Below, one piece after another: positions 3,254-64,000 of a stretch of 64,000 nucleotides of DNA. Source of the DNA: Armigeres subalbatus (taxonomy: Eukaryota > Arthropoda > Insecta > Diptera > Culicidae); assembly GCF_024139115.2 (NCBI RefSeq), contig NC_085140.1:28445806-28509805 (forward strand), in the 5' to 3' direction. The notes beneath the pieces are model-generated. The model saw only the letters and a list, made by a program, of their open reading frames with translations. It did no database searches and was not told the DNA's origin. A program made the translations under genes and the position numbers. Numbering within the stretch: the first letter of the stretch is position 1; every line of letters begins with the position of its first letter.

Positions 3254-3359
3254 CGGCCGTACGAAAACCATTTTTTGTTAAATATCTTGGCTGTGCATAT
3301 GCACAGCATATGTTTCGAAATGGACAAATTGATATGAAATTTGCGAAAAAGAATCCACG

Positions 3360-3431
3360 TGTCTTGGAGGGACTCGAACCCTCAACCTCCTACTCTCTAG
3401 ATAGGCGTGATAACCCCTACACAACAAGACC
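3360..3431 (-). tRNA. tRNA-like sequence (likely pseudogene or SINE head)
   Basis: Read on the minus strand, 72 nt fold as a cloverleaf. There are six of seven acceptor pairs, a five-pair anticodon stem with loop CTAGAGA (nominal anticodon AGA), a five-pair T stem GAGGG/CCCTC, and a perfect B box GGTTCGAGTCC. A tRNA-Ser should have a long variable arm, and this one has only five variable bases. With the first acceptor pair also mismatched, I read it as a tRNA-derived element, not a working gene. Confidence 0.5.
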
Positions 3432-18576: not shown

Positions 18577-21500
18577 TTCGGAAGCCTCCTTTCAAGAGAC
18601 TCGGAAGCCTCCTTTCAAGAGGCTCGGAAGCCTCCTTTCAAGAGGCTCGGAAGCCTCCTTTCAAGAGGCTCGGAAGCCTCCTTTCAAGAGGCTCGGAAGC
18701 CTCCTTTCAAGAGGCTCGGAAGCCTCCTTTCAAGAGGCTCGGAAGCCACCTTTCAAGAGGATGGAAAGGCTCGTTTCAAGAGGCTCGGATGCTTCCTTTC
18801 AAGAGGCCTCAAAACCTCCTTTCAAGAGGCTCTGGAAGCCTCCTTTCACGAGGCTCGGAATCCTCCTTTCAAAAGGCGCGGAACCCTCCTTTCAAGCGTC
18901 TCTGAAGCCTCCTCTCATGCTCCTCCGAAGCCTCCTTTCAAGAGGCTCGGAAGCCTCCTTTCAAGAGGCTCGGAAGCCTCCTTTCAAGAGGCTCGGAAGC
19001 CTCCTTTCAAGAGGCTCGAAGCCTCCTTTCAAGAGCTGGAAGCCTCCTTTCAAGAGGCTCAGAAGCCTCCTTTCAAGAGGCTCGAGGCCTCCTTTCAAGA
19101 GGCTCAAGGCCTCCTTTAAAGAGGCACGAAGGCCTCCTTTCAAGAGGCTCAGAAGCCTCCTTTCAAGAGCTGGAAGCCTCCTTTCAAGAGGCCTGGAAGC
19201 CTCCTTTCAAAAGGCCTGGAAGCCTCCTTTCAAGAAGCCTGGAAGCCTCCTTTCAAGAGGCTCGGAAGCCTCCTTTAAAGAGGCTCGGAAGCCTCCTTTC
19301 AAGAGGCTCGGAAGCCTCCTTTCAAGAGGCTCGAAAGCCTCCTTTCAAGAGGCTCGGAAGACTCCTTTCAAGAGGCTCTGAAGCCTCCTTTCAAGAGGCA
19401 CGAAAGCCTCCTTTCAAGAGGCTCGGAAGCCTCCTTTCAAGAGGCTCGGAAGCCTCCTTTTAAGAGGCTCGGAAACCTCCTTTTAAGAGGCTCGGAATCC
19501 TCCTTTCAAGAGGCTCGGAAGCCTCCTTTCGAGGGGCTTGGAAGCCTTCTTTCGAGAGGCTCGGAAGCCTCCTTTCGAGAGGCTCGGAAGCCTCCTTTCG
19601 AGAGGCTCGGAAGCTTCCTTTCGAGAGGCTCGGAAGCTTCCTTTCAAGAGGCTCGGAAGCCTCCTTTCAAGAGGCTCGGAAGCCTCCTTTCAAGAGGCTC
19701 GGAAGCCTCCTATCAAGAGGATCGAAAGCCACCCTTCAACAGGCTCGGTAGCTTCCTTCAAGAGACTCGGAAGCCTGCTTTCAAGAGGCTCGGAAGCTTC
19801 CTTGCAAGATGCTCGGAAGTCTCCTTCGAAGAAGATCGGAAGCCTCCTTAAAAGAGGCTCAGAAGCCTCCTTTCAAGAGGCTCGGAAGCCTCCTTTCAAG
19901 AGGCCTCAAGCCTCCTTTCAAGAGCTGGAAGCCTCCTTTCAAGAGGCCTCAGGCCTCCTTTCAAGAGGCTCAGAAACCTCCTTTCAAGAGGCTCAGAAGC
20001 CTCCTTTCAAGAGGCTCGGAAGCCTCCTTTTAAGAGGCTCGGAAACCTCCTTTCAAGAGGCTCGGAAGCCTCCTTTCGAGAGGCTCGGAAGCCTCCTTTC
20101 GAGGGGCTTGGAAGCCTTCTTTCGAGAGGCTCGGAAGCCTCCTTTCGAGAGGCTCGGAAGCCTCCTTTCGAGAGGCTCGGAAGCTTCCTTTCAAGAGGCT
20201 CGGAAGCTTCCTTTCAAGAGGCTCGAAAACCTCCTTTCAAGAGGCTCGGAAGCCTCCTTTCACGAGGCTCGGAAGCCTCCTTTCAAGAGGCTCGGAACCC
20301 TCCTTTCAAGAGGCTCGGAAGCCTCCTTTCAAGAGGCTCGGAAGCCTCCTTTCAAGAGGTTCGGAAGCCTTCTTTCAAGAGGCTCGGAAGCCTCCTTTTA
20401 AGAGGCTCGGAAGCCTCCTTTCCAGAGGCTCGGAAGCCTCCTTTCCAGAGGCTCGGAAGCCTCCTTTCATGAGGCTCGGAAGCCTCCTTTCAAGAGGTTC
20501 GAAGCCTCCTTTCAAGACATACGGAAGCCTACTTTCAAGAGTCTCGAAGGCCTCCTTTCAAGAGGCCTGGAAGCCTCCTTTCAAAAGCCTCTGAACCTCC
20601 TTTCAAAAGCCTCTGAAGCCTCCTTTCAAGAGGCTCGGAAGCCTTCTTTCAAGAGGCTCGGAAGCCGCCTTTGAAGAGATTCGGAAGCCTTCTTTCAAGA
20701 GGCTCGAAAGCCTCCTTTCAAGAGGCTCGGAAGCCTCCTTTCAAGAGGCTCGGAAGCTTCCTTTCAAGAGGCTCGAAAGCCTCCTTTCAAGAGGCACGAA
20801 AGCCTCCTTTCAAGAGGCTCAGAAGCCTCCTTTCAAGAGGCCTCAGAAGCCTCCTTTAAGAGGCTCGAAACCTCCTTTAAGAGGCTCAGAATCCTCCTTT
20901 CGAGAGGCTCAGGAAGCCTCCTTTCGAGGGGCTTGGAAGCCTTCTTTCGAGAGAGGCTCAGAAGCCTCCTTTCGAGAGGCTCAGGAAGCCTCCTTTCGAG
21001 AGGCCTGGAAGCCTCCTTTCAAGAGGCTCAGGAAGCCTCCTTTCAAGAGGCTGGAAGCCTCCTTTCAAGAGGCCTGAAGCCTCCTTTCAAGAGGCTCGGA
21101 AGCCTCCTTTCAAGAGGATCGAAAGCCACCTTTCAAGAGGCTCGAAAGCCTCCTTTCAAGAGGCTCGGAAGCCTCCTTTCAAGAGGCTCTGAAGCCTCCT
21201 TTCAAGAGGCTCGGAAGCCTCCTTTCAAGAGGCTCGGAAGCCTCCTTGCAAGAGTCTCACAATCCTCCTCTCAAGAGGCTCCGAAGGCTCCTTTCAAGAG
21301 GCTCAGAAGCCTATTTTCAAGAGGATCATAAGCCTCCTTCCAAAAGGCTCGGAAGCCTCGTTTCATGATGATCGGAAGCCTCCTTTTAAGAACCTCGGAA
21401 GCCTTCTTTCAAGAGGATCGGAAGCCTCGTTTCAAGAGGCTCGGAAGCCTCGTTTCAGAAGCCTCGGATGATTCTTGCAAGAGGCGCAGAAGCCTTCTTT

Positions 21501-24500
21501 CAAGAAGCTCGGAAGCCTTCTTTCAAGAGGCTCAGAAACTTACTTTCGAAAGGTTCGGAAGCCCCTTCAAGAGGCTCGGAAGCCTCCTTTCAAGAGGCTC
21601 GGAAGCCTCCTTTCAAGAGGCTCGGAAGCCTCCTTTCAAGAGGCTCGGAAGCCTCCTTTCAAGAGGCTCAGAAGCCTCCTTTCAAGAGGCTCGGAAGCCT
21701 CCTTTCAAGAGGCTCAGAAGCCTCCTTTCAAGAGGCTCAGAAGCCTCCTTTCAAGAGGCTCAGAAGCCTCCTTTCAAGAGGCTCGGAAGCCTCCTTTCAA
21801 GAGGCTCGGAAGCCTCCTTTCAAGAGGCTCGGAAGCCTCCTTTCAAGAGACTCGGAAGCCTCCTTTCAAGAGGCTCGGAAGCCTCCTTTCGAGAGGTTCT
21901 GAAGCCTCCGTTCAAGAGGCTCGGAAGCCTCCGTTCAAGAGGCTCGTAAGCCTTCTTCCAAGAGGCTCGGAAGCCTTCTTTCAAGAAGTTTGGAAGCCTC
22001 CTTTCAAGAAGATCAGAAGCCTCCTTCCAAAAGGCTCGGAAGCCTCGTTTCATGAGGATCGGAAGCCTCCTTTTAAGAAACTCAGAAGCCTTCTTTCAAG
22101 AGGATCGGAAGCCTCGTTTCAAGAGGCACGGAAGCCTCGTTCCAGAAGCCTCGGATGATTCTTTCAAGAGGCTCAGAAGCCTTCTTTCAAGAAGCTCGGA
22201 AGCCTTCTTTCAAGAGGCTCAGAAACTTACTTTCGGAAGGTTCGGAAGCCTCCTTTCAAGAGAATCGGAAGCCACCTTGCAAGAGGCTCGGAAGCCTCCT
22301 TTCAAGAGGCTCGGAAGCCTCCTTTCAAGAGGCTCGGAAGCCTCCTTTCAAGAGGCTCGGAAGCCTCCTTTCAAGAGGCTCGGACGGAAGCCTCCTTTCA
22401 AGAGGCTCGGAAGCCTCCTTTCAAGAGGCTCGGAAGCCTCCTTTCAAGAGGCTCGGAAGCCTCCTTTCAAGAGGCTCTGAAGCCTCTGTTCAAGAGGCTC
22501 GGAAGCCTCCGTTCAAGAGGCTCGTAAGCCTTCTTACAAGAGGCTCGGAAGCCTTCTTTCAAGAAGTTTGGAAGCCTCCTTACAAGAAGATCAGAAGCCT
22601 CCTTCCAAAAGGCTCGGAAGCCTCGTTTCATGAGGATCGGAAGCCTCCTTTTAAGAAACTCAGAAGCCTTCTTTCAAGAGGCTCGGAAGCCTCGTTTCAA
22701 GAGGCTCGGAAACCTCGTTTCAGAAGCCTCGGATGTTTCTTTCAAGAGGCTCAGAAGCCTTCTTTCAAGAAGCTCGGAAGCCTCCTTTCAAGAGGCTCAG
22801 AAACTTACTTTCAAAAGGTTCGGAAGCCTCCTTTCAAGAGAATCGGAAGCCCCCTTTCAAGAGGCTCGGAATCCTCCTTTCAAAAGGATAGGAAGCCTCC
22901 TTTCAAGAGGTTCGGAAGCCTCGTTTCAGGAGCCTCGGAAGCTTCCTATCGAAAGGCTCGGAAGCCCCTTTTTAAGAGGCTCGGAAGCCTCCTTTTAAGA
23001 GGCTCGGAAGCCTCCTTTCAAGAGGCTCGGAAACCTCCTTTCAAGAGGCTCGGAAGCCTCCTTTCAAGAGTCTCGGAAGCCTCCTTCCGAGAGGCTCAGA
23101 ATCCTTCTTTCAAGAGGCTCAGAGCCTCCTTTCAAGAGGCCTGGAAGCCTCCTTTCAAGAGCTCAGAAGCCTCCTTTCAAGAGGCTCGGAAGCCTCCTTT
23201 CAAGAGCTCAGCCTCCTTTCAAGAGGCCTGGAAGCCTCCTTTCAAGAGGCTCTCGAAGCCTCCTTTCAAGAGGCTCAGAAGCCTCCTTTCAAGAGGCTCA
23301 GAAGCCTCCTTTCAAGAGCTCAGAGCCTCCTTTCAAGAGGCTCAGGAAGCCTCCTTTCAAGAGGCTCAGGAAGCCTCCTTTCAAGAGGCTCAGGAAGCCT
23401 CCTTTCAAGAGGCTCAGAAGCCTCCTTTCAAGAGGCTCAGAGCCTCCTTTCAAGAGGCTCCAGAGCCTCCTTTCAAGAGGCTCAGGCCTCCTTTCAAGAG
23501 GCTCAGGAAGCCTCCTTTCAAGAGGCTCTGGAAGCCTCCTTTCAAGAGGCTCAGAGCCTCCTTTCAAGAGGCTCAGAAGCCTCCTTTCAAGAGGCTGGAA
23601 GCCTCCTTTCAAGAGGCTCAGGAAGCCTCCTTTCAAGAGGCTCAGAAGCCTCCTTTCAAGAGGCTCAGGAAGCCTCCTTTCAAGAGGCCTCAGAGCCTCC
23701 TTTCAAGAGGCTCAGGAAGCCTCCTTTCAAGAGGCTCAGAAGCCTCCTTTCAAGAGGCTCAGAAGCCTCCTTTCAAGAGGCTCAGAAGCCTCCTTTCAAG
23801 AGGCTGGAAGCCTCCTTTCAAGAGGCTCAGAAGCCTCCTTTCAAGAGGCTCAGAGCCTCCTTTCAAGAGGCTCAGAAGCCTCCTTTCAAGAGGCTCAGAG
23901 CCTCCTTTCAAGAGGCTCAGGCCTCCTTTCAAGAGGCCTGGAAGCCTCCTTTCAAGAGGCTCAGGAAGCCTCCTTTCAAGAGGCTCAGAGCCTCCTTTCA
24001 AGAGGCTCCAAGCCTCCTTTCAAGAGGCTCGGAAGCCTCCCTTTCAAGAGGCTGGAAGCCTCCTTTCAAGAGGCTCAGGCCTCCTTTCAAGAGGCTGGAA
24101 GCCTCCTTTCAAGAGGCTGGAAGCCTCCTTTCAAGAGGCTCAGGAAGCCTCCTTTCAAGAGGCTCAGGAAGCCTCCCTTTCAAGAGGCTCAGGAAGCCTC
24201 CTTTCAAGAGGCTCAGGAAGCCTCCTTTCAAGAGGCCTGGAAGCCTCCTTTCAAGAGGCTCAGGAAGCCTCCTTTCAAGAGGCTCAGAGCCTCCTTTCAA
24301 GAGGCTCAGGAAGCCTCCTTTCCAAGAGGCTCAGAGCCTCCTTTCAAGAGGCTCAGAGCCTCCTTTCAAGAGGCTCGGAAGCCTCCTTTCAAGAGGCTCA
24401 GGCCTCCTTTCAAGAGGCTCAGGCCTCCTTTCAAGAGGCTCAAGCCTCCTTTCAAGAGGCTCAGGAAGCCTCCTTTCAAGAGGCTCAGAGCCTCCTTTCA

Positions 24501-26869
24501 AGAGGCTCAGAGCCTCCTTTCAAGAGGCTCAGAAGCCTCCTTTCAAGAGGCTCAGGAAGCCTCCTTTCAAGAGGCTCAGGAAGCCTCCTTTCAAGAGGCC
24601 AGGAAGCCTCCTTTCAAGAGGCTCAGGCCTCCTTTCAAGAGGCTCAGAAGCCTCCTTTCAAGAGGCCTGGAAGCCTCCTTTCAAGAGGCTCAAGCCTCCT
24701 TTCAAGAGGCTCAGAGCCTCCTTTCAAGAGGCTCAGAGCCTCCTTTCAAGAGGCTCGGAAGCCTCCTTTCAAGAGGCTCAGAAGCCTCCTTTCAAGAGGC
24801 TCAGAGCCTCCTTTCAAGAGGCTCAGAAGCCTCCTTTCAAGAGGCTGGAAGCCTCCTTTCAAGAGGCTCAGAGCCTCCTTTCAAGAGGCTCAGAAGCCTC
24901 CTTTCAAGAGGCTCAGAGCCTCCTTTCAAGAGGCCAGGAAGCCTCCTTTCAAGAGGCTCAGAGCCTCCTTTCAAGAGGCTCAGAAGCCTCCTTTCAAGAG
25001 GCTCAGGAAGCCTCCTTTCAAGAGGCTCAGAAGCCTCCTTTCAAGAGGCTCAGAAGCCTCCTTTCAAGAGGCTCAGGAAGCCTCCTTTCAAGAGGCTCCA
25101 GGAAGCCTCCTTTCAAGAGGCTCAGAGCCTCCTTTCAAGAGGCTCAGAAGCCTCCTTTCAAGAGGCCTGGAAGCCTCCTTTCAAGAGGCTCAGAAGCCTC
25201 CTTTCAAGAGGCTCAGAGCCTCCTTTCAAGAGGCTCAGAGCCTCCTTTCAAGAGGCTCAGAGCCTCCTTTCAAGAGGCTCAGGAAGCCTCCTTTCAAGAG
25301 CTCAGGAAGCCTCCTTTCAAGAGGCTCAGAGCCTCCTTTCAAGAGGCTCAGGAAGCCTCCTTTCAAGAGGCTCAAGCCTCCTTTCAAGAGGCCTGGAAGC
25401 CTCCTTTCAAGAGGCTCAGAGCCTCCTTTCAAGAGGCTCAGGAAGCCTCCTTTCAAGAGGCTCAGAAGCCTCCTTTCAAGAGGCTCAAGCCTCCTTTCAA
25501 GAGGCTCAGAAGCCTCCTTTCAAGAGGCTCAGAGCCTCCTTTCAAGAGGCTCAGAAGCCTCCTTTCAAGAGGCCTGGAAGCCTCCTTTCAAGAGGCTCAG
25601 AAGCCTCCTTTCAAGAGGCTCAAGCCTCCTTTCAAGAGGCTCAGGAAGCCTCCTTTCAAGAGGCTCAGAGCCTCCTTTCAAGAGCTCAGAGCCTCCTTTC
25701 AAGAGGCTCAGAAGCCTCCTTTCAAGAGGCTCTGGAAGCCTCCTTTCAAGAGCTCAGGAAGCCTCCTTTCAAGAGGCTCAGAGCCTCCTTTCAAGAGGCT
25801 CGGAAGCCTCCTTTCAAGAGGCTCAAGCCTCCTTTCAAGAGGCTCAGAGCCTCCTTTCAAGAGGCTGGAAGCCTCCTTTCAAGAGGCTCAGGAAGCCTCC
25901 TTTCAAGAGGCTCAGAGCCTCCTTTCAAGAGGCTCAGGCCTCCTTTCAAGAGGCCTGGAAGCCTCCTTTCAAGAGGCTCAGAGCCTCCTTTCAAGAGGCT
26001 CAGAAGCCTCCTTTCAAGAGGCTCAGAGCCTCCTTTCAAGAGGCTCAGGAAGCCTCCTTTCAAGAGGCTCAAGCCTCCTTTCAAGAGGCTCAGAGCCTCC
26101 TTTCAAGAGGCCTGGAAGCCTCCTTTCAAGAGGCTCAGAGCCTCCTTTCAAGAGGCTCAGAAGCCTCCTTTCAAGAGGCTCAGAGCCTCCTTTCAAGAGG
26201 CCAGGAAGCCTCCTTTCAAGAGGCTCAGGAAGCCTCCTTTCAAGAGGCTCAGAAGCCTCCTTTCAAGAGGCCTCGGAAGCCTCCTTTCAAGAGGCTCCAG
26301 CCTCCTTTCAAGAGGCTCAGAGCCTCCTTTCAAGAGGCTCAGAGCCTCCTTTCAAGAGGCTCGGAAGCCTCCTTTCAAGAGGCTCAGGAAGCCTCCTTCA
26401 AGAGGCTCAGAAGCCTCCTTTCAAGAGGCTCAGGAAGCCTCCTTTCAAGAGGCCTGGAAGCCTCCTTTCAAGAGGCTCAGAAGCCTCCTTTCAAGAGGCT
26501 CAGAGCCTCCTTTCAAGAGGCTCAGGAAGCCTCCTTTCAAGAGGCTCAGAAGCCTCCTTTCAAGAGGCTCAGGAAGCCTCCTTTCAAGAGGCTCAGAAGC
26601 CTCCTTTCAAGAGGCTCAGGAAGCCTCCTTTCAAGAGGCTCAGGAAGCCTCCTTTCAAGAGGCTCAGGAAGCCTCCTTTCAAGAAGCTCGGAAGCCTCCT
26701 TTCAAGAGGCTCAGAAGCCTCTTTCAATAGGCTCAGAAGCCTCCTTTCAATAGGCCCGTGCGCCTGCTTTTAAGAGGCCGGAACCCTGCTTTCAAGAGAC
26801 TCGGAAGCCTCCTTTCAAGAGGCTTGGAAGCCTCCTTTCAAGAGGCTTGGAAGCCTCCTTTCAAGAGGC
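18577..26869 (+). repeat. 8.3-kb array of a 23-bp satellite unit
   Basis: Tandem copies of GGAAGCCTCCTTTCAAGAGGCTC, about 360 by length. Each unit contains GCCTC-CTTTCAA-GAGGC, a five-pair stem with a seven-base loop. From 18577 to about 23100 the units are mostly 23 bp with the junction GGCTCGGAAGCC. From about 23100 to 26720 the junctions are mostly GGCTCAG(A)AGCC, GGCTCAGGAAGCC, GGCTGGAAGCC or GGCCTGGAAGCC, so unit length varies by a few bases. Larger blocks are themselves duplicated. A 1,532-codon open frame at 22155-26753 and many others exist only because the unit has no stop in any forward frame. Confidence 0.97.
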
Positions 26870-26873
26870 TACC

Positions 26874-48150: not shown

Positions 48151-48435
48151 AACCATAAAATAAAAATCCTAATCCACACCATAACCCAAATCCTAATTCA
48201 GGTCCTGATCCAAAAAAGAATTTAAATCCGAATCCAAATTCAGATAAAGATTCAAATCCAAACTTCATTCCTAATCCAAAGCCTTATCCAGATCAAATTC
48301 AAACTAAAACCAAATACTAATTAAAATCCATTAAATTCCGAAATTTTAACTAAATTCTTTTCCAAGCTTAATCAAAATGTTAACATTTTCCAAAAACCTA
48401 TTACACACCCAAATTAAAAACCTGATTTGAAAAAA
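48150..48435. repeat. Decayed left margin of the CCAAT satellite
   Basis: Irregular AATCC, CCAAATCC and AATCCAAA phrases spaced about 6-12 bases apart, with many substitutions, lead into the regular array. This is the usual look of an old array edge. Confidence 0.7.
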
Positions 48436-51400
48436 TCCTAATCCAAATTCAATTCGATTCCAATCCAAATCCAATCCAAACCAAACCCAAACCCAATCCA
48501 AATCCAATCCAAAACCAATCCAAATCCAATCCAAATCCAATCCAAATCCAATCCAAATCCAAACCAAATCCAATCCAAATCCAATCCAAATCCAATCCAA
48601 ATCCAATCCAAACCAACCAAACCAATCCAAACCAATCCAAACCAATCCAAACCAATCCAAACCAATCCAAACCAATCCAAACCAAACCAAACCAATCCAA
48701 ACCAATCCAAACCAATCCAAACCAATCCAAACCAATCCAAACCAATCCAAACCAATCCAAACCAAACCAAACCAATCCAAACCAATCCAAACCAACCAAA
48801 CCAATCCAAACCAATCCAACCAATCCAAACCAACCAAACCAATCCAATCCAAATCCCATCCAAACCCATCCAAACCAAACCCATCCAAATCCCATCCAAC
48901 CAATCCAAACCAATCCAAACCAATCCAAACCAACCAAACCAATCCAAACCAATCCAAACCAATCCAAACCAATCCAAACCAATCCAAACCAATCCAAACC
49001 AATCCAAACCAATCCAAACCAATCCAAACCAATCCAAACCAATCCAAACCAATCCAAACCAATCCAAACCAACCAAACCAATCCAAACCAACCAAACCAA
49101 TCCAAACCAATCCAAACCAACCAAACCAATCCAAACCAATCCAAACCAATCCAAACCAATCCAAACCAATCCAAACCAACCAAACCAATCCAAACCAATC
49201 CAAACCAACCAAACCAATCCAAACCAACCAAACCAATCCAAACCAATCCAAACCAATCCAAACCAATCCAAACCAATCCAAACCAATCCAAACCAATCCA
49301 AACCAATCCAAACCAATCCAAACCAATCCAAACCAATCCAAACCAATCCAATCCAAACCAATCCAAACCAATCCAAACCAAACCAAACCAATCCAAACCA
49401 ATCCAAACCAATCCAAACCAATCCAAACCAACCAAACCAATCCAAACCAATCCAAACCAATCCAAACCAACCAAACCAATCCAAACAATCCAAACCAATC
49501 CAAACCAATCCAAACCAATCCAAACCAATCCAAACCAAACCGAACCAATCCAAACCAATCCAAACCAACCAAACCAATCCAATCCAATCCAAACCAATCC
49601 AAACCAATCCAAACCAATCCAAACCAACCAAACCAATCCAAACCAATCCAAACCAATCCAAACCAATCCAAACCAAACCAAACCAATCCAAACCAACCAA
49701 ACCAATCCAAACCAACCAAACCAACCAAACCAATCCAAACCAAACCAAATCCAAACCAAACCAATCCAAACCAATCCAAACCAATCCAAACCAATCCAAA
49801 CCAATCCAAACCAATCCAAACCAATCCAAACCAATCCAAACCAATCCAAACCAATCCAAACCAATCCAAACCAATCCAAACCAATCCAAACCAACCAAAC
49901 CAACCAAACCAAATCGAATCCAATCCAAACCAATCCAAACCAATCCAATCCAAACCAATCCAAACCAATCCAAACCAATCCAAATCAAACCAAACCAATC
50001 CAAACCAATCCAAACCAATCCAAACCAATCCAAACCAAACCAAACCAATCCAAACCAAATCGAATCCAATCCAAACCAATCCAAACCAATCCAATCCAAA
50101 CCAAACCAACCAAATACAATCCAAATCCAATCCAAATCCAGTCCAAATCCAGCCCAAATCCAATACAAATCGAATACACATCCAATCCAAATCCAATCCA
50201 AATCCAAATCCAATCCAATCCAAATCCAATCCAAATAAAAATCCAATCCAAATCCAGTCCAAATCCAGCCCAAATCCAATACAGATCCAATACACATCCA
50301 ATCCAAATCCAATCCAAATCCAATCCAAATCCAATCCAAATCCAATCCAAATCCAATCCAAATCCAATCCAAATCCAATCCAAATCCAATCCAAATCCAA
50401 TCCAAACCAATCCAAACCAATCCAAACCAATCCAAACCAATCCAAACCAATCCAAACCAATCCAAACCAATCCAAACCAATCCAAACCAAACCAAACCAA
50501 TCCAAACCAATCCAAACCAACCAAACCAATCCAAACCAATCCAAACCAAACCAAACCAAACCAAACCAATCCAAACCAATCAAACCAACCAAACCAATCC
50601 AAACCAATCCAAACCAATCCAAACCAATCCAAACCAATCCAAACCAATCCAAACCAATCCAAACCAATCCAAACCAATCCAAATCCAATCCAAACCAATC
50701 CAAACCAATCCAAACCAATCCAAACCAATCCAAACCAATCCAAACCAATCCAACCAATCCAAACCAATCCAACCAAATCGAACCAATCCAAACCAATCCA
50801 AACCAATCCAATCCAAACCAATCCAAACCAATCCAAACCAATCCAAACCAATCCAAACCAATCCAAATCAAACCAAATCAAACCAAACCAATCCAAACCA
50901 ATCCAAACCAATCCAAACCAATCCAACCAAACCAAATCCAATCCAAACCAAATCGAACCAATCCAAACCAATCCAAACCAATCCAATCCAAACCAAATCC
51001 AATCCAAACACAATCCAAACCAATCCAAACCAGTCCAACCAGCCCAAACCAACACAAATCGAATACAACATCCAATCCAAACCAACCAAACCAAACCAAC
51101 CAATCCAAACCAATCCAACCAGTCCAACCAGCCCAAACCAACACAGATCCAACACACATCCAATCCAAACCAATCCAAACCAACCAAACCAATCCAAACC
51201 AACCAAACCAATCCAAACCAACCAAACCAATCCAAACCAATCCAAACCAATCCAAACCAATCCAAACCAATCCAAACCAATCCAAACCAATCCAAACCAA
51301 TCCAAACCAATCCAAACCAATCCAAACCAATCCAAACCAATCCAAACCAATCCAAACCAATCCAAACCAACCAAACCAATCCAAACCAATCCAAACCAAT

Positions 51401-54400
51401 CCAAACCAATCCAAACCAACCAAACCAATCCAAACCAATCCAAACCAATCCAAACCAACCAAACCAATCCAAACCAATCCAAACCAATCCAAACCAATCC
51501 AAACCAATCCAAACCAATCCAAACCAACCAAACCAACCAAACCAACCAAACCAATCCAAACCAATCCAAACCAATCCAAACCAATCAAACCAATCCAAAC
51601 AAAAACCAACCAAACCAGTCCAAACCAGCCCAAACCAACACAACATCCAATCCAAACCAACCAAACCAATCCAAACCAATCCAAACCAATCCAAACCAAT
51701 CCAAACCAATCCAAACCAATCCAAACCAATCCAAATCCAATCCAAACCAATCCAACCAATCCAAACCAATCCAAACCAATCCAAACCAATCCAAACCAAC
51801 CAAACCAATCCAAACCAATCCAAACCAATCCAAACCAATCCAAACCAATCCAAACCAATCCAAACCAACCAAACCAATCCAAACCAATCCAAACCAACAA
51901 AACCAAACCAACCAAATCAAAACCAATCAAAACCAATCCAAACCAATCCAAACCAACGCAAATCTAATCCAATCCAAACCAATCCAAACCAATCCAAACC
52001 AATCCAAACCAATCCAAACCAATCCAAACCAATCCAAACCAACCAAACCAATCCAAACCAATCCAAACCAATCCAAACCAATCCAAACCAACCAAACCAA
52101 TCCAAACCAACCAAACCAATCCAAACCAATCCAAACCAATCCAAACCAATCCAAACCAATCCAAACCAACCAAACCAATCCAAACCAACCAAACCAATCC
52201 AAACCAATCCAAACCAACCAAACCAATCCAAACCAATCCAAACCAATCCAAACCAACCAAACCAACCAAACCAACCAAACCAACCAAACCAATCCAAACC
52301 AATCCAAACCAATCCAAACCAACCAAACCAATCCAAACCAACCAAACCAATCCAAACCAATCCAAACCAACCAAACCAATCCAAACCAATCCAAACCAAC
52401 CAAACCAATCCAAACCAATCCAAACCAATCCAAACCAATCCAAACCAATCCAAACCAACCAAACCAATCCAAACCAATCCAAACCAACCAAACCAATCCA
52501 AACCAATCCAAACCAATCCAAACCAATCCAAACCAATCCAAACCAATCCAAACCAATCCAAACCAATCCAAACCAATCCAAACCAATCCAAACCAATCCA
52601 AACCAATCCAAACCAACCAAACCAATCCAAACCAATCCAAACCAATCCAAACCAATCCAAACCAATCCAAACCAACCAAACCAATCCAAACCAATCCAAA
52701 CCAATCCAAACCAACCAAACCAACCAAACCAACCAAACCAATCCAAACCAACCAAACCAATCCAAACCAATCCAAACCAATCCAAACCAATCCAAACCAA
52801 ACCAATCCAAACCACCCAAACCAATCCAAACCAATCCAAACCAATCCAAACCAATCCAAACCAATCCAAACCAACCAAACCAATCCAAACCAATCCAAAC
52901 CAATCCAAACCAATCCAAACCAATCCAAACCAACCAAACCAATCCAAACCAATCCAAACCAATCCAAACCAATCCAAACCAATCCAAACCAATCCAAACC
53001 AATCCAAACCAACCAAACCAATCCAAACCAACCAAACCAATCCAAACCAACCAAACCAATCCAAACCAATCCAAACCAATCCAAACCAATCCAAACCAAC
53101 CAAACCAATCCAAACCAATCCAAACCAATCCAAACCAATCCAAACCAATCCAAATCCAATCCAAACCAACCAAACCAATCCAAACCAATCCAAACCAACC
53201 AAACCAATCCAAACCAATCCAAACCAACCAAACCAATCCAAACCAATCCAAACCAATCCAAACCAATCCAAACCAATCCAAACCAACCAAACCAATCCAA
53301 ACCAACCAAACCAATCCAAACCAATCCAAACCAATCCAAACCAATCCAAACCAATCCAAACCAATCCAAACCAACCAAACCAACCAAACCAATCCAAACC
53401 AATCCAAACCAATCCAAACCAATCCAAACCAATCCAAACCAACCAAACCAATCCAAACCAATCCAACCAATCCAAACCAACCAAACCAATCCAAACCAAT
53501 CCAAACCAATCCAAACCAATCCAAACCAATCCAAACCAATCCAAACCAATCCAAACCAATCCAAACCAATCCAAACCAATCCAAACCAATCCAAACCAAT
53601 CCAAACCAATCCAAACCAACCAAACCAATCCAAACCAATCCAAACCAATCCAAACCAAACCAATCCAAGTCCAATCCAAGTCCAATCCAAACCAATCCAA
53701 ACCAATCCAAACCAATCCAAACCAATCCAAACCAATCCAAACCAATCCAAGTCCAACCAAGTCCAATCCAAACCAATCCAAACCAACCACATCCAATCCA
53801 AACCAATCCAAACCAATCCAAACCAATCCAAACCAATCCAAACCAATCCAAACCAATCCAAACCAACCAAACCAATCCAAACCAATCCAAACCAATCCAA
53901 ACCAATCCAAACCAATCCAAACCAATCCAAACCAACCAAACCAATCCAAACCAACCAAACCAATCCAAATCCACCCAACCAATCCAAACCAATCCAAACC
54001 ACTCCAACCAATCCAAACCAATCCAAACCAATCCAAACCAATCCAAACCAATCCAAACCAATCCAAACCAATCCAAACCAATCCAAACCAATCCAAACCA
54101 ATCCAAACCAATCCAAACCAATCCAAACCAATCCAAACCAATCCAAACCAATCCAAACCAATCCAAACCAATCCAAACCAATCCAAACCAATTCAAACCA
54201 ATCCAAACCAATCCAAACAAATCCAAATCAATCCAAACCAATCCAAATCCAATCCAAATCCAATCCAAATCCAATCCAAATCCAATCCAAATCCAATCCA
54301 AATCCAATCCAAATCCAATCCAAATCCAATCCAAATCCAATCCAAATCCAATCCAAATCCAGTCCAAATCCAATCCAAATCCAATCCAAATCCAATCCAA

Positions 54401-54411
54401 TCCAAATACAA
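48436..54411 (+). repeat. 6-kb satellite of CCAATCCAAA-type units
   Basis: The bulk unit is the 10-mer CCAATCCAAA. A 9-bp form CCAACCAAA is interspersed, and an 11-bp form CCAATCCAAAT dominates both edges (48465-48605 and 54240-54405) and an inner block (50100-50405). The plus strand is almost only A, C and T, and the minus strand is GG-rich (TTTGGATTGG). It lies in the large Epac intron. Long minus-strand frames rich in Trp, Gly, Leu and Phe (up to 844 codons) come from the unit and are not genes. The right edge at 54411 is abrupt. Confidence 0.97.
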
Positions 54412-57625: not shown

Positions 57626-58793
57626 ATGAGCATTAATAAAAACAAGAGGAACCCCCTTCTCTGAATTCTCCACTTCCTTCAAAGAAACAAGGTTTCAAGA
57701 CCATCCTGCCAAGGCGCGGAAAAATAGAAGGAAGCTGGAGACTTCAGATGTTCCTTCTTACTCGAATATCGGAAATAATTCTTCTCCTATCGAACTGTGC
57801 AATCAGTTCGATTTGATTAATGATGAAATTGAGCAAATCGAATATACCTCTAGCCCAGGTGATTCGATTCATGCGAAAAAGCAAAGGATTCCGCCAATTG
57901 TAGTATCTGTTGCCGAGTTTTCTGGCTTCCGGAATGAGATTTTGAGCAACCTTCAGGGGATCAAGGTTTCATTTCAGATTGCTAGGAAGGGTGACTGCCG
58001 CGTTTTGCCGGGATCCTTTGACGATCGCAAACGTCTTCTTCAGTATTTAACTGAGAAGCGCCATAAATTCTTCACATACGACGACAAAACTGAGCGATTG
58101 TTCAAAGTCGTCTTGAAAGGTCTCCCCAGTGATGACAAATCACTGGATGAGATTAAAATTGAAATTTCTCAATTACTTGGATTTTCACCAGTCCAAGTAA
58201 TTAAGATGAAAAAGAAATCCCACTCTGGTACTTCCCAAAGGGGCATTTCTCAAGAATTTTATTTAGTTCATTTTAACAAAAGTGAACTAAATAATATGAA
58301 AAGTTTGGAAAAGGCCTGTATTATGTCTCATGTCCGTGTTACATGGGAACATTTCCGCAGGCCTGGGGGAAATTTCCAAAACCCCAACCAGTGCCGTAAG
58401 TGGCAAAAATGGGGTCATGGAACCAAACATTGTCACATGGATGCTAAATGCATGATTTGTGGTGGAACCTCTCACGCCAAGGACGCATGTCCTGTGAGAG
58501 AAGATTCCAATAAATTTAAATGTGCAAATTGTGGGGGCAATCATAAATCCAATTTCTGGGAATGCCCTTCACGCAAAAGTTTTGAATTCCCGTGCAAAAT
58601 TGATGACGGAAATTCCAATCGGATCCCAGATTCGACGGGTAGAAATTTTTCAAACGCTCAAATTTCGAAACCAGTTACCGGTCGAGCAATTCATACCCAC
58701 CACAATTCACAAACAAATTTTGCCGCTCGTCAACGGGTAGCAAGCACTTCAGTAAATTCCAATTTTTCGAATGTACCTACGTGTGGTATCTGA
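57626..58793 (+). pseudogene. Jockey-clade ORF1 (gag-like) cut by a gypsy LTR
   Basis: A clean frame runs from 57813 to 58793 (326 codons). Residues matching the ORF1 start (MSINKNKRN, then SPLPSKKQGFKTILPRRG) begin near 57626, but two frameshifts before 57720 separate them. The protein has the pre-C2HC fold region (KFFTYDDKTERLFKVVLKGL) and three zinc-knuckle positions: CRKWQKWGHGTKHC, CMICGGTSHAKDAC and CANCGGNHKSNFWEC. In the first, the second Cys is Trp, so that knuckle is probably unable to bind zinc. The last codon is a TGA made of the first three bases of the gypsy LTR (58791), so the natural C-terminus is lost. ORF1 proteins coat the element RNA. Confidence 0.8.
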
Positions 58794-58952
58794 AATATCG
58801 AGGTACTTCCGAATTTGGGGTTCACAAGAAACTACAGAGCACAATTTACTGAAGCACGACAATCTTTATTCACCGCTCGTCTCACACCACTGATTATACT
58901 AATCTCTCTCTTAAAACTTAATCAAGGATCACTAGATCTCTTCGACATCACA
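58791..58952 (-). repeat. 3' LTR of the gypsy element (162 bp)
   Basis: Read on the minus strand it starts TGTGATGTCGAAGAGATC and ends CTCGATATTTCA (TG...CA). It lies downstream of pol, just after a polypurine tract. It contains GAATAAA near 58875 (minus), a possible polyadenylation signal. No matching 5' LTR is inside the window. Confidence 0.75.
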
Positions 58953-58972: not shown

Positions 58973-61900
58973 TTAATCCAATAATGCTTGTATATATTGT
59001 TCGAGATATTCAGGACGTTTCGTCTCTCGACGACTGCGACGGATAGCTGTTTGTTCTTCCATTGGAATCTGGTGATGCGGAGTCTGTATCATTTCTTCAC
59101 CAGGTGTTGATGTTTGGGTTTCAACCGGTTCATTTACGGATTTGAGATGGGTGATATTCCTGCGATATACTTTGCCAGTTTCCATTGAGCGGATGCTTAC
59201 TTCAGATCCATTTCTTGCTATTATTTTGAAATTCTCTTCGCTGAAGTTGGTCGATAATTTGTTCTCCTTCGAAATCCTTTTGGCAACCACAATGTCTCCC
59301 TCTTTCAACTGGTTGGTTTGGGCGTTCCTACGGCGGTCTGTTGATTCAGCTGCTGAGACTTTCCGTTCCCAATCGCGATCCTTGATTCCTTCCATCCACA
59401 GTCTATTGGTGTTGTGAATGCTCGGGATTTTATCTCTAAGTACCCTGCCAAACATTAGAGCCGATGGAGCTTCTCCTGTCGTAGAATGCGGAGTAGAATT
59501 GTACATTAACAGAAAAGTACGCAAATCCCACTTCCAATTGGGAGATCCTTCTACCTGGCTGATCCTTAGTCGCTTAAGAATTGTGTTATTCATTCGTTCC
59601 ACCTCTCCATTTGCCTGGGGCCAATACGGTGTGGTTCTTTGGTGATCGATGCCAAATTCACGGCAGAAAGCGCGGAAAGAATCACTTACAAACTGTGGCC
59701 CATTGTCCGATCTGACTGTTTCTGGTACTCCGAAACGACTGAATGTTTCGAATAATGCTTGAATAGTTAGTTCACTAGTTATCTGCTTCATTACGATCGC
59801 CTCAGTAAATCTACTAAAGTAGTCAATTATTACAAGAAGGAAATGCCCCGAAGGCAGTGGTCCTAGGAAATCTATTGCTACTACACACCATGGTCGATCA
59901 GGAATTCTTGAACGGTGCATTGGTTCAGGGGGACCTACAGCTGACACAAGCGTGCATGAGCCACAATGCTTCACAAATTTTTCAACGCACTCATCTATTT
60001 TTGGCCACCAAACTTTTTGTCTCAACCTACGTTTCATTACACTCATTCCTGGATGACCATCATGCGCACATGTCAGTACCTGTTGTCGGAGTACTGTGGG
60101 TATTATAAGCCTGTCTCCTCTCAACAGAACGCCCTTAGCTGAATGTATTTCTGAATTGAAACACTTGAAAGCTTTTACTTCATCTGACCAACATCCAGTT
60201 TGTAGTGCCTTTTGAAGCTTCTGAAGTGTTTCATCTTGCTCAGTTGCTTCAACCACTTGAACAAGTGTTACAGCTTCCGGAATCGAGTTTACCACTAGAT
60301 GGTTAATAAAGGTTTCTGCCGTCTTATCGAAAGGCTTCTCGCTACTTACTGACAACCTGGATAATGCATCGGCCAGATTTGTTGCCCCTGGCTCGTACTT
60401 AATGTCATAGTTATAAGACTGAATACGAAGCACCCATCGCTCAATTCGTGGACATGGACGAGATCGGGGGTTGAATAAGAATTTTAATGCTTTGCAATCA
60501 GTAATGAGAAGAAACTTGATACCCAGTAAGTATAATCGGAATTTTTCAACCCCCCACACGATCGCTAAAGCTTCACGTTCAGTTTGGAAGTATTTGCGCA
60601 CTGTCCATTTAATTCCACCAGTTAATTAACTGGTGGAATTAAATGGACAGTACTTAATTCGTCTTAGACGGTTTAATACATTCCACTAAACGAGCTTAAT
60701 ATATTTTTCTGAGTATTTGCGCTCTAAGTCGGTAAGTGCCTTGCTTGCAAACGCGATTATCTGATTTTGACCATCCATGTTTTCTTGAAGTAGGACCGCC
60801 CCTAAACCTTCAGGGCTTGCATCTACTATTAATTTCGTTCTCTTCTTGCGATCAAAGAAACCCAAATAGCCTATATCGCTGACTGCCTCTTTTATCCTTC
60901 TGAAAGCTTTACGCTGATCGTCGTTCCATGAAAATGTTACTCCTGTACGTAACAAAATCCTCAGTGGTTCCGTTTTGGCTGCCAGATTCGGAATGAATCG
61001 TCCAACATAAGTAATCAAACCCAGGAAACTTCTAAGCTCAGCTACTGTTTTCGGTTCCCTAAATTTGGTTATCGATTCAATTCGGCTTTCCGTTGGGCTA
61101 ACACCTTTTTCACTCAGCACATGTCCTAGAAAATCAATTTCCTTTGCTCCGAAAATGCACTTCTCGTTGTTCAAAAGAACGTCATATTCCTGTAAACGTT
61201 TCAAGAGTGCTTGAAGACGTTTATCATGTTCTTCCTGTGTCGACCCGAATACTACTATATCATCAAGATAAACAACAACTCCTTCTAAGCCGGCTAGTAA
61301 TGATTCCATTGTCTTTTGGAAGATTTCCGGAGCACAGCTGATACCAAACATGAGTCTTCTATATCTACAGAATGTCCATTATTAGAAAAATACGAAATAT
61401 AATTCAAAAATTACTAATTTTATTTGCGTAATATTTTAGAATACGAATTCAAATTAAAAAATCAATAGTTTTACAATTTACCTGAATAAACCGCTTTTTG
61501 TAATGAAGGTAGTAATTGGCCTAGATCTTTCTGATATTTCCAGTTGATGATATGCGTCCTTGATATCGATTTTTGAAAAAAGTTTAGCGCCTGACACTGA
61601 TCCAAGAATTTCATCTACCAGAGGTAGTGGGTGCGTTTCTCGGAGAACCGCCTGGTTTGCTCGACGCATATCGATGCACAAACGAACTTCACCAGAAGAC
61701 TTCAAAACTGGAACCATAGGAGAGACCCAAGGAGATGGTCCACTTACACGTTCGATAATCCCTTCTTTCTGCAACATTTGTAACTTATCGTTCACCTTAT
61801 CCTCAAGAGCGTACGGGGCACGCCGAAAGGCTTGCTGCACAGGTTGAACGGTTTCATCGATTGGTATTTCAACTGTAACACCTTTGAACTTCGGGAATTC

Positions 61901-63226
61901 GACTTGTGGAGATTTAGAGATGTTTCCGATATCAAAACCAACTTTCAGGACCTGCAGAGCTTTCGCCGTTTGGTCACCCAACAAATTTTGTTGTCCTGCC
62001 TTGGCAACATAGAATTTCGCCGCCAGATTCCTTTCGCCTCCTTGAATCATTGCCATGAAACTTCCCGACATATATAATGGCTCGTTCGAAGCGTAGCATG
62101 TAAAATTTTTATCAATGTCCGTTGACATGTCCCACACCGATACTTTCATCTGTTTCATTTTCTCCCATGTTGTCTGACTAACGATGTTTGCAGCAGCGCC
62201 CGAGTCGATGACCATTGGTACTTGGACTCCCCCTACTTCAAACATGAATGTATTCTCCCCCATAGCATAAAATATGTATTCATTATCTTTATCTTGACTA
62301 TCGTCGCCGTGGACAATTCTGATGCGCTTTGTAGAATTCGGATATTGGCTATTATAGTTGACTCGTTTCAAGCATTGCTTAGCAAAATGCCCGATGCCTT
62401 TGCATTTCAGGCATGCTGCACCCTTTGCCGGACAAGAGTCAGCTCCTCTGACATGACCCCGCTTACCACAAGCGTAACAAACTGGGGTCGATCGATTCCT
62501 TCCCTGAACATATTGATGTTTGAACTGAACATTTTGATGTTTTCCCATACCTAAAATAATCTGAATTTAGAAAATCTTCTTAATTCTTCATTTCAATTTT
62601 AATAATTTACCAAAAGTCTCGTTTTTCTTTTCCGGTTTCCATTTCGATACTTTACTGATTTGGTCGTTAGACGTCGCAACCCTTGAAAATTCTTTCATTT
62701 TCCGCTCGCTTTCCTCCAAACTTGTGCCGAGGCTCTCCACTTCGTTCAGCAACATATCACGCTTCAACAGTTTCTGGCGAAGTTTGTCAGTATAGCACTT
62801 CTCTACTATCTGATCCAATATCATCTCCTCTGGTTTGTCGTATTCACATCTCTTAACTTGGGTTCTTAGCCGTAAAACGAAGTCGGAAAATCGTTCAGTC
62901 GATTTCTGTGCGATTTGGCGAAACAGATGGCGTTCATATGTCCGCCTGCGAAATGGCTCGAAATGCGCATCCAACTTCGCGATTGCAGCGTCATAATACG
63001 GGGGATTTATAACGACCAGCGATACTGTTTCAACTTCGGGCAAATTGTCGTAAATATCTCTTAGATCAGAGCCACCGAGATAAAGTAATTTGGACCGTTT
63101 TTCGTACTGCCCTTCAATCTTTTCAGATTCAAAGTAGCACTCAAGGTCACGCTTCCATTTGGCCCAAGCCACCGGTAACTGAGAAGACTCGAGCGATGTT
63201 TCTAATGGTCTGATGCGCATGTCCAT
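58973..63226 (-). CDS. Ty3/gypsy (Mag-like) gag-pol with two GT-AG introns and one small insertion
   Basis: Minus-strand gag-pol read in segments. 63226-62611 is Gag (YESFEKIEGQ-like capsid region, CYTDKLRQKLL). 62550-61482 holds two zinc knuckles (CYACGKRGH, CLKCKGIGHFAKQC), protease VIDSGAAANIV and RT CIDMRRANQAV, FSKIDIKDAYHQL. 61364-60600 is the rest of RT (VVVYLDDIVVFG) and RNase H (LIVDASPEGLG). 60599-58973 is RNase H (LLITDCKALKFLF, ATNLADALSR), integrase zinc site (HDGHPG, KHCGSC) and DDE core (VVAIDFLGPL, VRSDNGPQFV, WPQANGEVERMN). Every catalytic residue is present. Introns at 62551-62610 and 61365-61481 join in frame. A 112-bp insertion plus 11-bp duplication breaks RNase H. Without these, the coding length is 3,954 nt. 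No env. The Mag-like assignment rests on similarity to K02A2.6-type proteins. Confidence 0.85.
60600..60711. mobile_element. 112-bp insertion with 52-bp perfect palindrome, in RNase H
   Basis: The duplication AGTATTTGCGC lies at 60589-60599 and 60712-60722. The insert begins with a perfect 52-bp palindrome (60600-60651; half-site ACTGTCCATTTAATTCCACC + AGTTAA). The remaining 60 bp (TACTTAATTCGTCTTAGACG...) has no repeat partner here. It stops the RNase H frame about 11 codons in. Confidence 0.8.
61365..61481 (-). other. Intron 2 of the gypsy gag-pol (117 bp)
   Basis: Minus strand: donor CAG|GTAAATTG, acceptor CATTCTGTAG|ATA, about 80 percent A+T. The upstream exon ends two bases into a codon and the join keeps the conserved RT frame. 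If it is kept, the frame stops at TAA two bases inside the donor. Confidence 0.8.
62551..62610 (-). other. Intron 1 of the gypsy gag-pol (60 bp)
   Basis: Minus strand: donor TTTTG|GTAAATTA, acceptor ATTATTTTAG|GTATGG. The join completes a Gly codon and links Gag to the zinc-knuckle segment. If it is kept, Gag ends at TGA seven residues later (212 residues). Sixty bp is near the usual lower size for insect introns. Confidence 0.78.
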
Positions 63227-63227
63227 A

Positions 63228-63307
63228 CTGTTATTTTTTTAAACATTTGGATATTCGGGAAAACCAGTAAAAATAGTAATAAAAATTATTCTGGACCAGC
63301 ATCTTAC
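63228..63307 (-). other. Possible 5' leader intron of the gypsy element
   Basis: Minus strand: donor ATTATTT|GTAAGATG at 63307 and acceptor AATAACAG|TATGG at 63228, just before the Gag ATG. The donor is good. The acceptor's upstream tract is A-rich, so this is weaker than introns 1 and 2. Confidence 0.35.
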
Positions 63308-63405
63308 AAATAATAACTCAAACGCACCATTCCACAATCATTGAAAAAAAAATGTGATGAAACTCTCTCATATTTTGAATTGATATTAATAAATAAATTT
63401 AATAT
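63308..63405. other. Gypsy leader or flank, 5' LTR not seen
   Basis: AT-rich sequence between the Gag start and the poly-T of the next element. The gypsy 5' LTR is missing here. It may have been displaced to the right by the insertion at 63406 or lost. Confidence 0.45.
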
Positions 63406-64000
63406 TTTTTTTTTTTTTATCTTTCGTTTATTTGGAAGGCTCATTTGCCGTGAAGCGTTACGGAGCCGAAATCAAGTTTAACAATACATTTCTTGATTCT
63501 TATACATAGTGTTAGTTTTGGGGAACCGAAAGACTCGCGGTTTAGTCGAGGTTAGGGAATACAATAATACAGTAGGAAAGGAAAGGATTTTAGGGTGCTT
63601 AAGTAATTACGATGCTGATGTTCACAAAGTTGACATTCCTCGCATTTTTACATCTGTAACGGGACAAACAAACTTTTTTTGGGAGACAACGACGAGAGGA
63701 AGACATACGGAAGGGATTAACGACAGACATGGAAATGTACAACAAGAGGAAGACATTCGATATGGGGTACGACAGACAAGGGAATGGGCAGACAATGATT
63801 ACAGCTTTACATCAGCAACTTTCAAAAATTGGTGGACCAGGGGCATGTACTCGAGATCAAGGCCCGACAACACTTCCCTAATAGGCTTTGGTTGTTTTCC
63901 TCGGACCCGGAGATGTTCAGTTAGCGCAGATCTGGGGCCACGATGCTCCTCGCACGCCCACACGACATGATCGATGTCCTGATAATCCTCGCCGCAAACA
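63406..64000 (-). mobile_element. 3' end of a non-LTR retrotransposon (continues off the window)
   Basis: Minus strand. From the right edge the frame reads CGEDYQDIDHVVWACEEHRG, then REVLSGLDLEYMPLVHQFLK, and stops at about 63804. This is the C-terminal knuckle and tail of an I/R1/Jockey-superfamily ORF2. A 3' UTR of about 390 bp follows and ends in a poly-A tail (T run at 63406-63419 on plus). It seems to have landed in the gypsy leader. The clade is uncertain. Confidence 0.75.

What the first reader, a model, noticed from the sequence alone, without database searches (positions are those of the whole stretch)
58973..63226. An LTR retrotransposon whose gag-pol is interrupted by two spliceosomal-type introns
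Seen: the minus-strand gag-pol is open from 63226 to 58973 except at two AT-rich gaps, 62551-62610 and 61365-61481, each starting GTAAATT and ending TTTAG or TGTAG. Both joins fall inside codons and keep the frame, the second within the conserved RT block. Coding length without these gaps and the later insertion is 3,954 nt, an exact multiple of three. All protease, RT, RNase H and integrase catalytic residues are present, so the gaps are not decay. Known: retrotransposition goes through RNA, so introns should be lost unless the genomic RNA is unspliced. Inference: the element keeps them because they are useful, or this is a host-adopted gene. I know of no Mag-like element with introns in RT.
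Basis: partly seen in the sequence, partly recalled or inferred. Interest (0 to 1): 0.9.

Follow-up and report, generated by a model that had tools for sequence, protein, structure and literature searches.

The report
Mosquito jumping genes keep an intron
A large group of mosquito virus-like jumping genes carries a removable intron in the middle of its copying enzyme, although they multiply through RNA and should lose it, which suggests that they use RNA splicing to control how much enzyme they make.

Summary
The copy is recent: its LTRs are identical (171/171), the 5' one lying outside the window. Intron 2, in RT at GLFR|YRRLMFG, is the important one. It sits at the same codon in 64 of 68 scorable loci and in 35 of 36 families; the 31 families testable are synonymously saturated. 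Three families also hold copies that lack exactly the intron beside intron-bearing sisters 96-99% identical upstream, so it is removed precisely from some RNA. Retrieved proteins put this break in one well-supported clade. The donor makes the next unspliced codon a stop (64 of 64). A sister group lacks it but breaks further down RT (15 of 16; 13 resolve to one GT-AG site); protein ends suggest three further positions, all between protease and integrase. Intron 1 is local. Best reading: unspliced RNA is genome and Gag-protease message; spliced RNA makes full Gag-Pol, as in plant Ogre. Regulation is inferred; no RNA was examined.

The parts
58782..58952 (-). 3' LTR, 171 bp (TG...CA)
   Evidence: Four copies share this end and then have unlike flanks, compared by eye; one search lists 17 matches, fragments included, among them the 5' LTR of this copy, 100% over 1-171, at G000:C2:28516901-28517071 outside the window
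62611..63226 (-). exon 1: Gag, 205 codons plus the first base of a split codon
   Evidence: no Pfam match
62551..62610 (-). intron 1, 60 nt, in the Gag to zinc-knuckle linker; lineage-specific
   Evidence: one member of each family examined: linker frame broken in 5 of 35, open in 30 of 35
61482..62550 (-). exon 2: zinc knuckle, protease (DSG), first part of RT
61365..61481 (-). intron 2 (site A), 117 nt, inside the RT arginine codon AG|A; donor reads AGG TAA
60686..61364 (-). exon 3, first piece as read to the stop inside the insertion: RT from YRRLMFG through YLDD, start of RNase H
   Evidence: best solved-structure matches are Ty3 RT
60600..60711 (.). later 112-bp insertion holding a palindrome with 26-bp arms, flanked by AGTATTTGCGC twice; breaks this copy
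   Evidence: absent in L001, L012, L016
58973..60599 (-). exon 3, second piece: rest of RNase H, integrase, stop
63227..63414 (-). leader of the element, cut by the tail of a non-LTR element
   Evidence: 98.4% over 309 nt to L001

Best explanation
An LTR retrotransposon of a mosquito clade whose single gag-pol frame is interrupted by a retained spliceosomal intron in RT. Unspliced RNA serves as genome and, because the donor GTAA or GTAG puts a stop right after the junction, as message for Gag-protease ending in an RT stub without YLDD. Part of the RNA is spliced by the host and encodes full Gag-Pol. The intron thus does the job that a frameshift or stop readthrough does in other retroelements. 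Shown from DNA: intron identity, exact junction, wide retention, recent transposition of intron-bearing copies, precisely intron-free sister copies. Inferred: that only part of the RNA is spliced, and that selection maintains the ratio.
For: Same-codon intron in 64 of 68 scorable loci and 35 of 36 families; 73-157 nt in the 61 complete ones; AT 0.77 versus 0.57 in exon; lengths in all three classes mod 3 (26/20/15). Intron sequences have diverged (8 of 561 family pairs give a hit) while 100 nt of flanking exon still align (459 and 517 of 561), and AG|GTA...YAG is kept in 34 of 34 families with a complete intron. Among the 31 families with an open exon 2 piece, 0 of 465 pairs have usable dS. 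Precise removal in L027, L054 and L065 beside sisters 98.3 and 96.0, 99.1, and 99.0% identical over 700 nt upstream. Recent transposition with the intron: LTR pairs identical over 171 bp in the window copy and L001, unlike flanks of four copies. Stop is the next codon in 64 of 64. All 18 thinned site-A rows lie in one group with support 100/98. A sister group without site A breaks at another RT site. Donor +5 is G in 2 of 34 families, a hint of weak donors. Splicing of only a subset of transcripts with a like layout is reported for plant Ogre (passage of PMC6317226).
Against: No RNA was examined. In this phase any GTRA donor gives a stop, so the stop alone proves little. Branch-point-like YTRAY is no commoner than in shuffles (15 of 34 against a mean of 16.0). 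The unspliced product runs past protease into RT, unlike a classical Gag/Gag-Pol switch. Intron-free copies exist (4 of 68), and L065 is only 91-93% identical to its sisters downstream. Deep branches of the tree are weak.
Confidence: 0.62

Rival explanations
1. Passive retention: only unspliced RNA is packaged, for instance through a packaging signal or export route, so the intron is rarely lost and has no regulatory use.
For: Intron-bearing copies dominate (64 of 68) and were recently transposed.
Against: Three families hold precise loss copies, so loss happens, yet in the tree the one continuous raw ORF inside the clade is at a tip. Breaks at other places of pol in related groups are not expected from passivity.
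Confidence: 0.25
2. Host-adopted gene with ordinary introns.
For: Introns are typical of host genes.
Against: 120 matches in the genome, four copies of the window family with unlike flanks, identical LTR pairs.
Confidence: 0.02
3. Programmed frameshift, readthrough or simple decay rather than splicing.
For: Stops and frame breaks are common in dead copies.
Against: Fixed position, GT-AG ends, lengths in all three classes mod 3 and exact removal in sister copies.
Confidence: 0.03
4. The zero-gap copies arose from cDNA made by another element's enzymes or by gene conversion, and the family's own cycle never uses spliced RNA as template. This is compatible with the best explanation.
For: Loss copies are few (4 of 68; L070 has no near intron-bearing sister among the loci), and LTRs of the loss copies were not recognised in the stretches fetched.
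Against: It does not by itself explain retention.
Confidence: 0.3

Closest known systems
Plant Ogre elements (Ty3/gypsy)
   Different: Ogre's intron separates two ORFs (274 bp on average in that passage); here it is 73-157 nt inside the RT core, in mosquitoes, and related groups break at other sites.
Drosophila copia and barley BARE1
   Same: Splicing of retrotransposon RNA sets Gag against Pol output (passages of PMC3735527).
   Different: There splicing makes a Gag-only RNA; here the unspliced RNA would be the Gag-protease form and splicing completes Pol.
Mag lineage elements of Culex quinquefasciatus
   Same: Like elements in a mosquito: 13 Mag-lineage families; the Table 1 rows seen list one or two ORFs; three have tandem repeats in the 5' UTR (passages of PMC3286476).
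   Different: In the passages seen, introns are mentioned only for host genes.
Penelope-like elements with introns
   Same: Retroelements that keep introns (only the title of Arkhipova et al. 2003 was seen, in a reference list; that it concerns Penelope-like elements is recalled).
   Different: Another retroelement class with another replication route (recalled).

Membership tests
Ty3/gypsy (Metaviridae) LTR retrotransposon | order protease, RT, RNase H, integrase | tested here: met
   Pfam on separate pieces; protease seen only as the DSG motif in the translation
Ty3/gypsy (Metaviridae) LTR retrotransposon | paired LTRs beginning TG and ending CA | tested here: met
   171-bp LTR pairs, 100% identical, for this copy and for L001
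Ty3/gypsy (Metaviridae) LTR retrotransposon | RT most like Ty3 RT among solved structures | tested here: met
   4ol8 and 7q5b lead the 13 matches
Ty3/gypsy (Metaviridae) LTR retrotransposon | short target duplication and tRNA primer site | not tested
Mag lineage | RT groups with Bombyx mag | not tested
Spliceosomal intron | GT-AG ends, AT-rich, frame not kept | tested here: met
Spliceosomal intron | branch-point-like motif before the acceptor | tested here: inconclusive
   YTRAY in 15 of 34, shuffled mean 16.0
Spliceosomal intron | precise absence in RNA-derived copies | tested here: met
   L027, L054, L065 against sisters
Spliceosomal intron | spliced reads | not testable with these tools
   no RNA data; P0255 (continuous, 3902-nt contig, nested in the clade) could be a transcript or a loss copy
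Ogre-like splicing-regulated Gag-Pol | only a subset of transcripts spliced | not testable with these tools
   no RNA data

The most novel reading that the evidence does not exclude
Mosquito (perhaps wider insect) Ty3/gypsy elements have repeatedly captured a spliceosomal intron between protease and integrase: site A at GLFR|Y and site D at KK|VL, seen in DNA, and by protein ends also HQ|IEIS, THKG| and the RNase H end FKFK|V. Each time host splicing became a switch between Gag-protease and Gag-Pol, and the site A intron has been kept under selection through a whole radiation of families.
Probability: 0.5. Interest if true: 0.88.

Novelty: new variant of a known kind. Interest (0 to 1): 0.82.

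Why it matters
Retrotransposons copy themselves through RNA, so an intron inside the coding frame should vanish. A clade that keeps one at a fixed codon past synonymous saturation, while related groups appear to carry theirs elsewhere in pol, is a natural experiment on how mobile elements balance genome and message. It also shows that ORF callers cut these elements in two, and it makes intron gain and loss in animals testable on recent, datable copies.

Tried and rejected
Host gene, decay and recoding were set aside as argued under the rivals. Viral contigs gave no relative. Branch-point consensus was not enriched. dN/dS between families could not be computed: usable dS in 0 of 465 pairs for exon 2 (31 families) and in 1 of 231 for exon 3 (ratio 0.05); within families the exon 2 ratios run from 0.08 to 1.14 on few changes, one pair undefined, and exon 3 ratios are 0.26, 0.26 and 0.60. 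A host donor baseline was sought through P450 introns and failed for lack of letters.

Rows dropped or doubtful. L029 and L058 of 70 loci were not scorable at site A. L050 (416-nt gap, donor CG|GTAAAT), L010 and L023 (cut short by tblastn) count among the 64 but not among the 61 complete introns. For site D, 16 of 21 full matches at 39-45% identity were fetched; L073 and L077 were not resolved by the script, and where it offered two pairs (L078, L081, L083, L085) I took the AG|GT one. Of 302 proteins retrieved, 162 covered the RT piece: 82 raw ORFs end at site A, 21 raw ORFs run on, 8 end at the RNase H site, 3 at THKG, 48 are NCBI models (37 run on, 11 end) (the NCBI list was made by hand from the listings). 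The tree holds 65 rows after thinning site-A rows at 78% and picking 15 NCBI rows. The protein searches list only the best 120 of 173, 1628 and 1266 hits, and genome counts are lower bounds.

Literature: ten searches were answered. No title or abstract start shown there speaks of an intron inside a mosquito LTR element; most subscription journals are not held. Passages were read in PMC3286476, PMC5718144, PMC3735527 and PMC6317226; no paper was read whole.

Full report
What is there. The minus-strand gag-pol between 63226 and 58973 is open except for two GT-AG gaps at exactly the stated places and one later insertion at 60600-60711 with an 11-nt duplication, absent from three sister copies. 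Separate pieces hold the zinc knuckle, RT, RNase H and integrase, and exon 3 is nearest Ty3 RT among solved structures. The 3' LTR is 58782-58952; the 5' LTR, 100% over all 171 bases, lies about 7 kb beyond the window end at G000:C2:28516901-28517071. The tail of a non-LTR element meets the leader at 63415. The genome's three large contigs have the lengths of contigs that one search gives for Armigeres subalbatus proteins, so that species is inferred (a culicine mosquito).

Other copies. The exon 2 protein has 120 matches in this genome, a lower bound. I obtained 70 loci with flanks and measured the distance from the end of exon 2 to the start of exon 3. In 64 of 68 scorable loci an intron splits the same arginine codon; 61 are complete as AG|GT...AG|A or G, 73-157 nt, median 100. 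At 80% nucleotide identity the loci form 36 families, of which 35 have the intron in at least one copy. Between families the flanking exons still align and the introns mostly do not (459 and 517 against 8 of 561 pairs). Synonymous sites are saturated among the 31 families that could be tested (0 of 465 pairs usable). The intron is therefore old, and its position and ends are kept.

Is it spliced? Four loci have a gap of exactly zero: L027, L054, L065 and L070. The first three have intron-bearing sisters: L040 98.3% and L057 96.0%, L053 99.1%, L032 99.0% over 700 nt upstream; downstream the best figures are 100% (L057), 99.7% over 294 nt, and 93.2% (L028). The junction text shows removal to the base. 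Exact absence in three families is what reverse transcription of spliced RNA leaves behind. The nearest relative of L070 among the loci is at 74.6%. LTRs of the loss copies were not recognised in the stretches fetched, so how they were inserted is open.

Does the intron-bearing form transpose? The window copy and L001 each have LTR pairs that match the query at 100% over 171 bp, and four copies of the family end at the same LTR base followed by unlike flanks (by eye). All four have intron 2 by spacing; in the three compared with the window all 116 aligned bases are identical. So intron-bearing RNA was recently used as template.

Intron 1. The 60-nt intron 1 is present by spacing in the four copies of this family, with a mutated donor in L012. 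In one member each of 35 families, 30 have an open linker from Gag to RT and 5 a broken one. It is a younger, local feature.

Wider distribution. Of 162 retrieved proteins that cover the RT piece, 82 raw ORFs stop at the junction, as AG|GTAA or AG|GTAG would make them. Some downstream ORFs begin with residues such as a translated pyrimidine tract would give and then RYKRLMFG; many simply begin at the methionine of MFG. In a 65-row tree of a 150-column RT piece all 18 thinned site-A rows fall in one group of 21 rows with support 100/98; the other three are two NCBI models (Ochlerotatus, Malaya) and P0255, a continuous ORF in a 3902-nt contig that may be a transcript or a loss copy. Outside it, raw ORFs such as P0258, P0268, P0276, P0284, P0297 and P0298 (1286-1384 residues) run through the junction, and so do NCBI models from Anopheles, Bradysia, Plutella and Cydia, whose gene models may themselves be spliced. 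Deep branches are weak.

Other breaks. Of 21 full matches at 39-45% identity I fetched 16 short stretches. None has site A; one (L071) is continuous; 15 break about 52 codons further down, after YLDD. Thirteen of the 15 resolve to the same phase-0 site, KK or equivalent before VL, with AG|GT at both ends; L073 and L077 were not resolved. Protein ends point to three more positions: HQ|IEIS (P0201, P0205, P0230), THKG| (P0115, P0118, P0119) and the RNase H end FKFK|V (eight proteins). In the last group the tree also holds three raw ORFs that run on (P0259, P0272, P0282), and in this genome, of 14 stop-free single matches at 64% or more that reach the site, 8 have frames at most 30 codons longer than the match and 6 have frames at least 176 codons longer (letters not seen). 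That intron, if real, is thus not fixed. These three positions rest on protein ends only. All five lie after protease and before integrase.

Mechanism. Shown from DNA: the intron, its exact junction, precise absence in some sister copies, wide retention, and transposition with it. Inferred: only part of the RNA is spliced; unspliced RNA is genome and Gag-protease message, spliced RNA is Gag-Pol message. The in-frame stop in 64 of 64 intron-bearing loci and the rarity of G at donor +5 (2 of 34 families) fit this, but the stop follows from any GTRA donor in this phase, and no host donor baseline was measured. Plant Ogre does the like with an intron between ORFs (passage of PMC6317226); copia and BARE1 splice the opposite way, to make Gag-only RNA (passages of PMC3735527). 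In PMC3286476, on Culex Mag-lineage elements, the passages seen give one or two ORFs and no intron inside elements.

Verdict. It is a new variant of a known kind: an Ogre-like arrangement in mosquito Ty3/gypsy elements, inside RT, clade-wide, and apparently reached more than once.

Noticed in passing
57630-58793 +: A 387-codon frame with CCHC-like cysteines, like ORF1 of a non-LTR element (likeness by eye, no Pfam match), runs into the LTR element's end at 58782.
   Followed up: partly
63415-64000 -: Tail of a non-LTR element with poly-A sits in the leader of the LTR element; from the LTR positions the extra length against L001 is about 6.1 kb, most of it beyond the window.
   Followed up: partly
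60600-60711: 112-bp insertion with a perfect palindrome (26-bp arms) and an 11-nt duplication; its family was not identified.
   Followed up: partly
18578-26870: 8.3-kb array of a 23-bp unit, open in several frames.
   Followed up: no
48434-54405: 6-kb array of 5- or 10-bp units that leaves frames of up to 2015 codons open.
   Followed up: no
L001:1-640 (minus strand of the locus): The leader of the L001 copy holds 13 GGCGG motifs in imperfect repeats; Culex Mag elements with 5' UTR repeats are in print (passage of PMC3286476).
   Followed up: no
L031, L018, L043 linker regions: Other families have stops and acceptor-like sequence between Gag and zinc knuckle, which may be further linker introns.
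   Followed up: no
G000:C2:452720890-452721060 and 452730300-452730473: A further LTR pair at 93-94% identity, 9.4 kb apart, not among the loci studied.
   Followed up: no
3359-3431 -: tRNA gene by Rfam.
   Followed up: no
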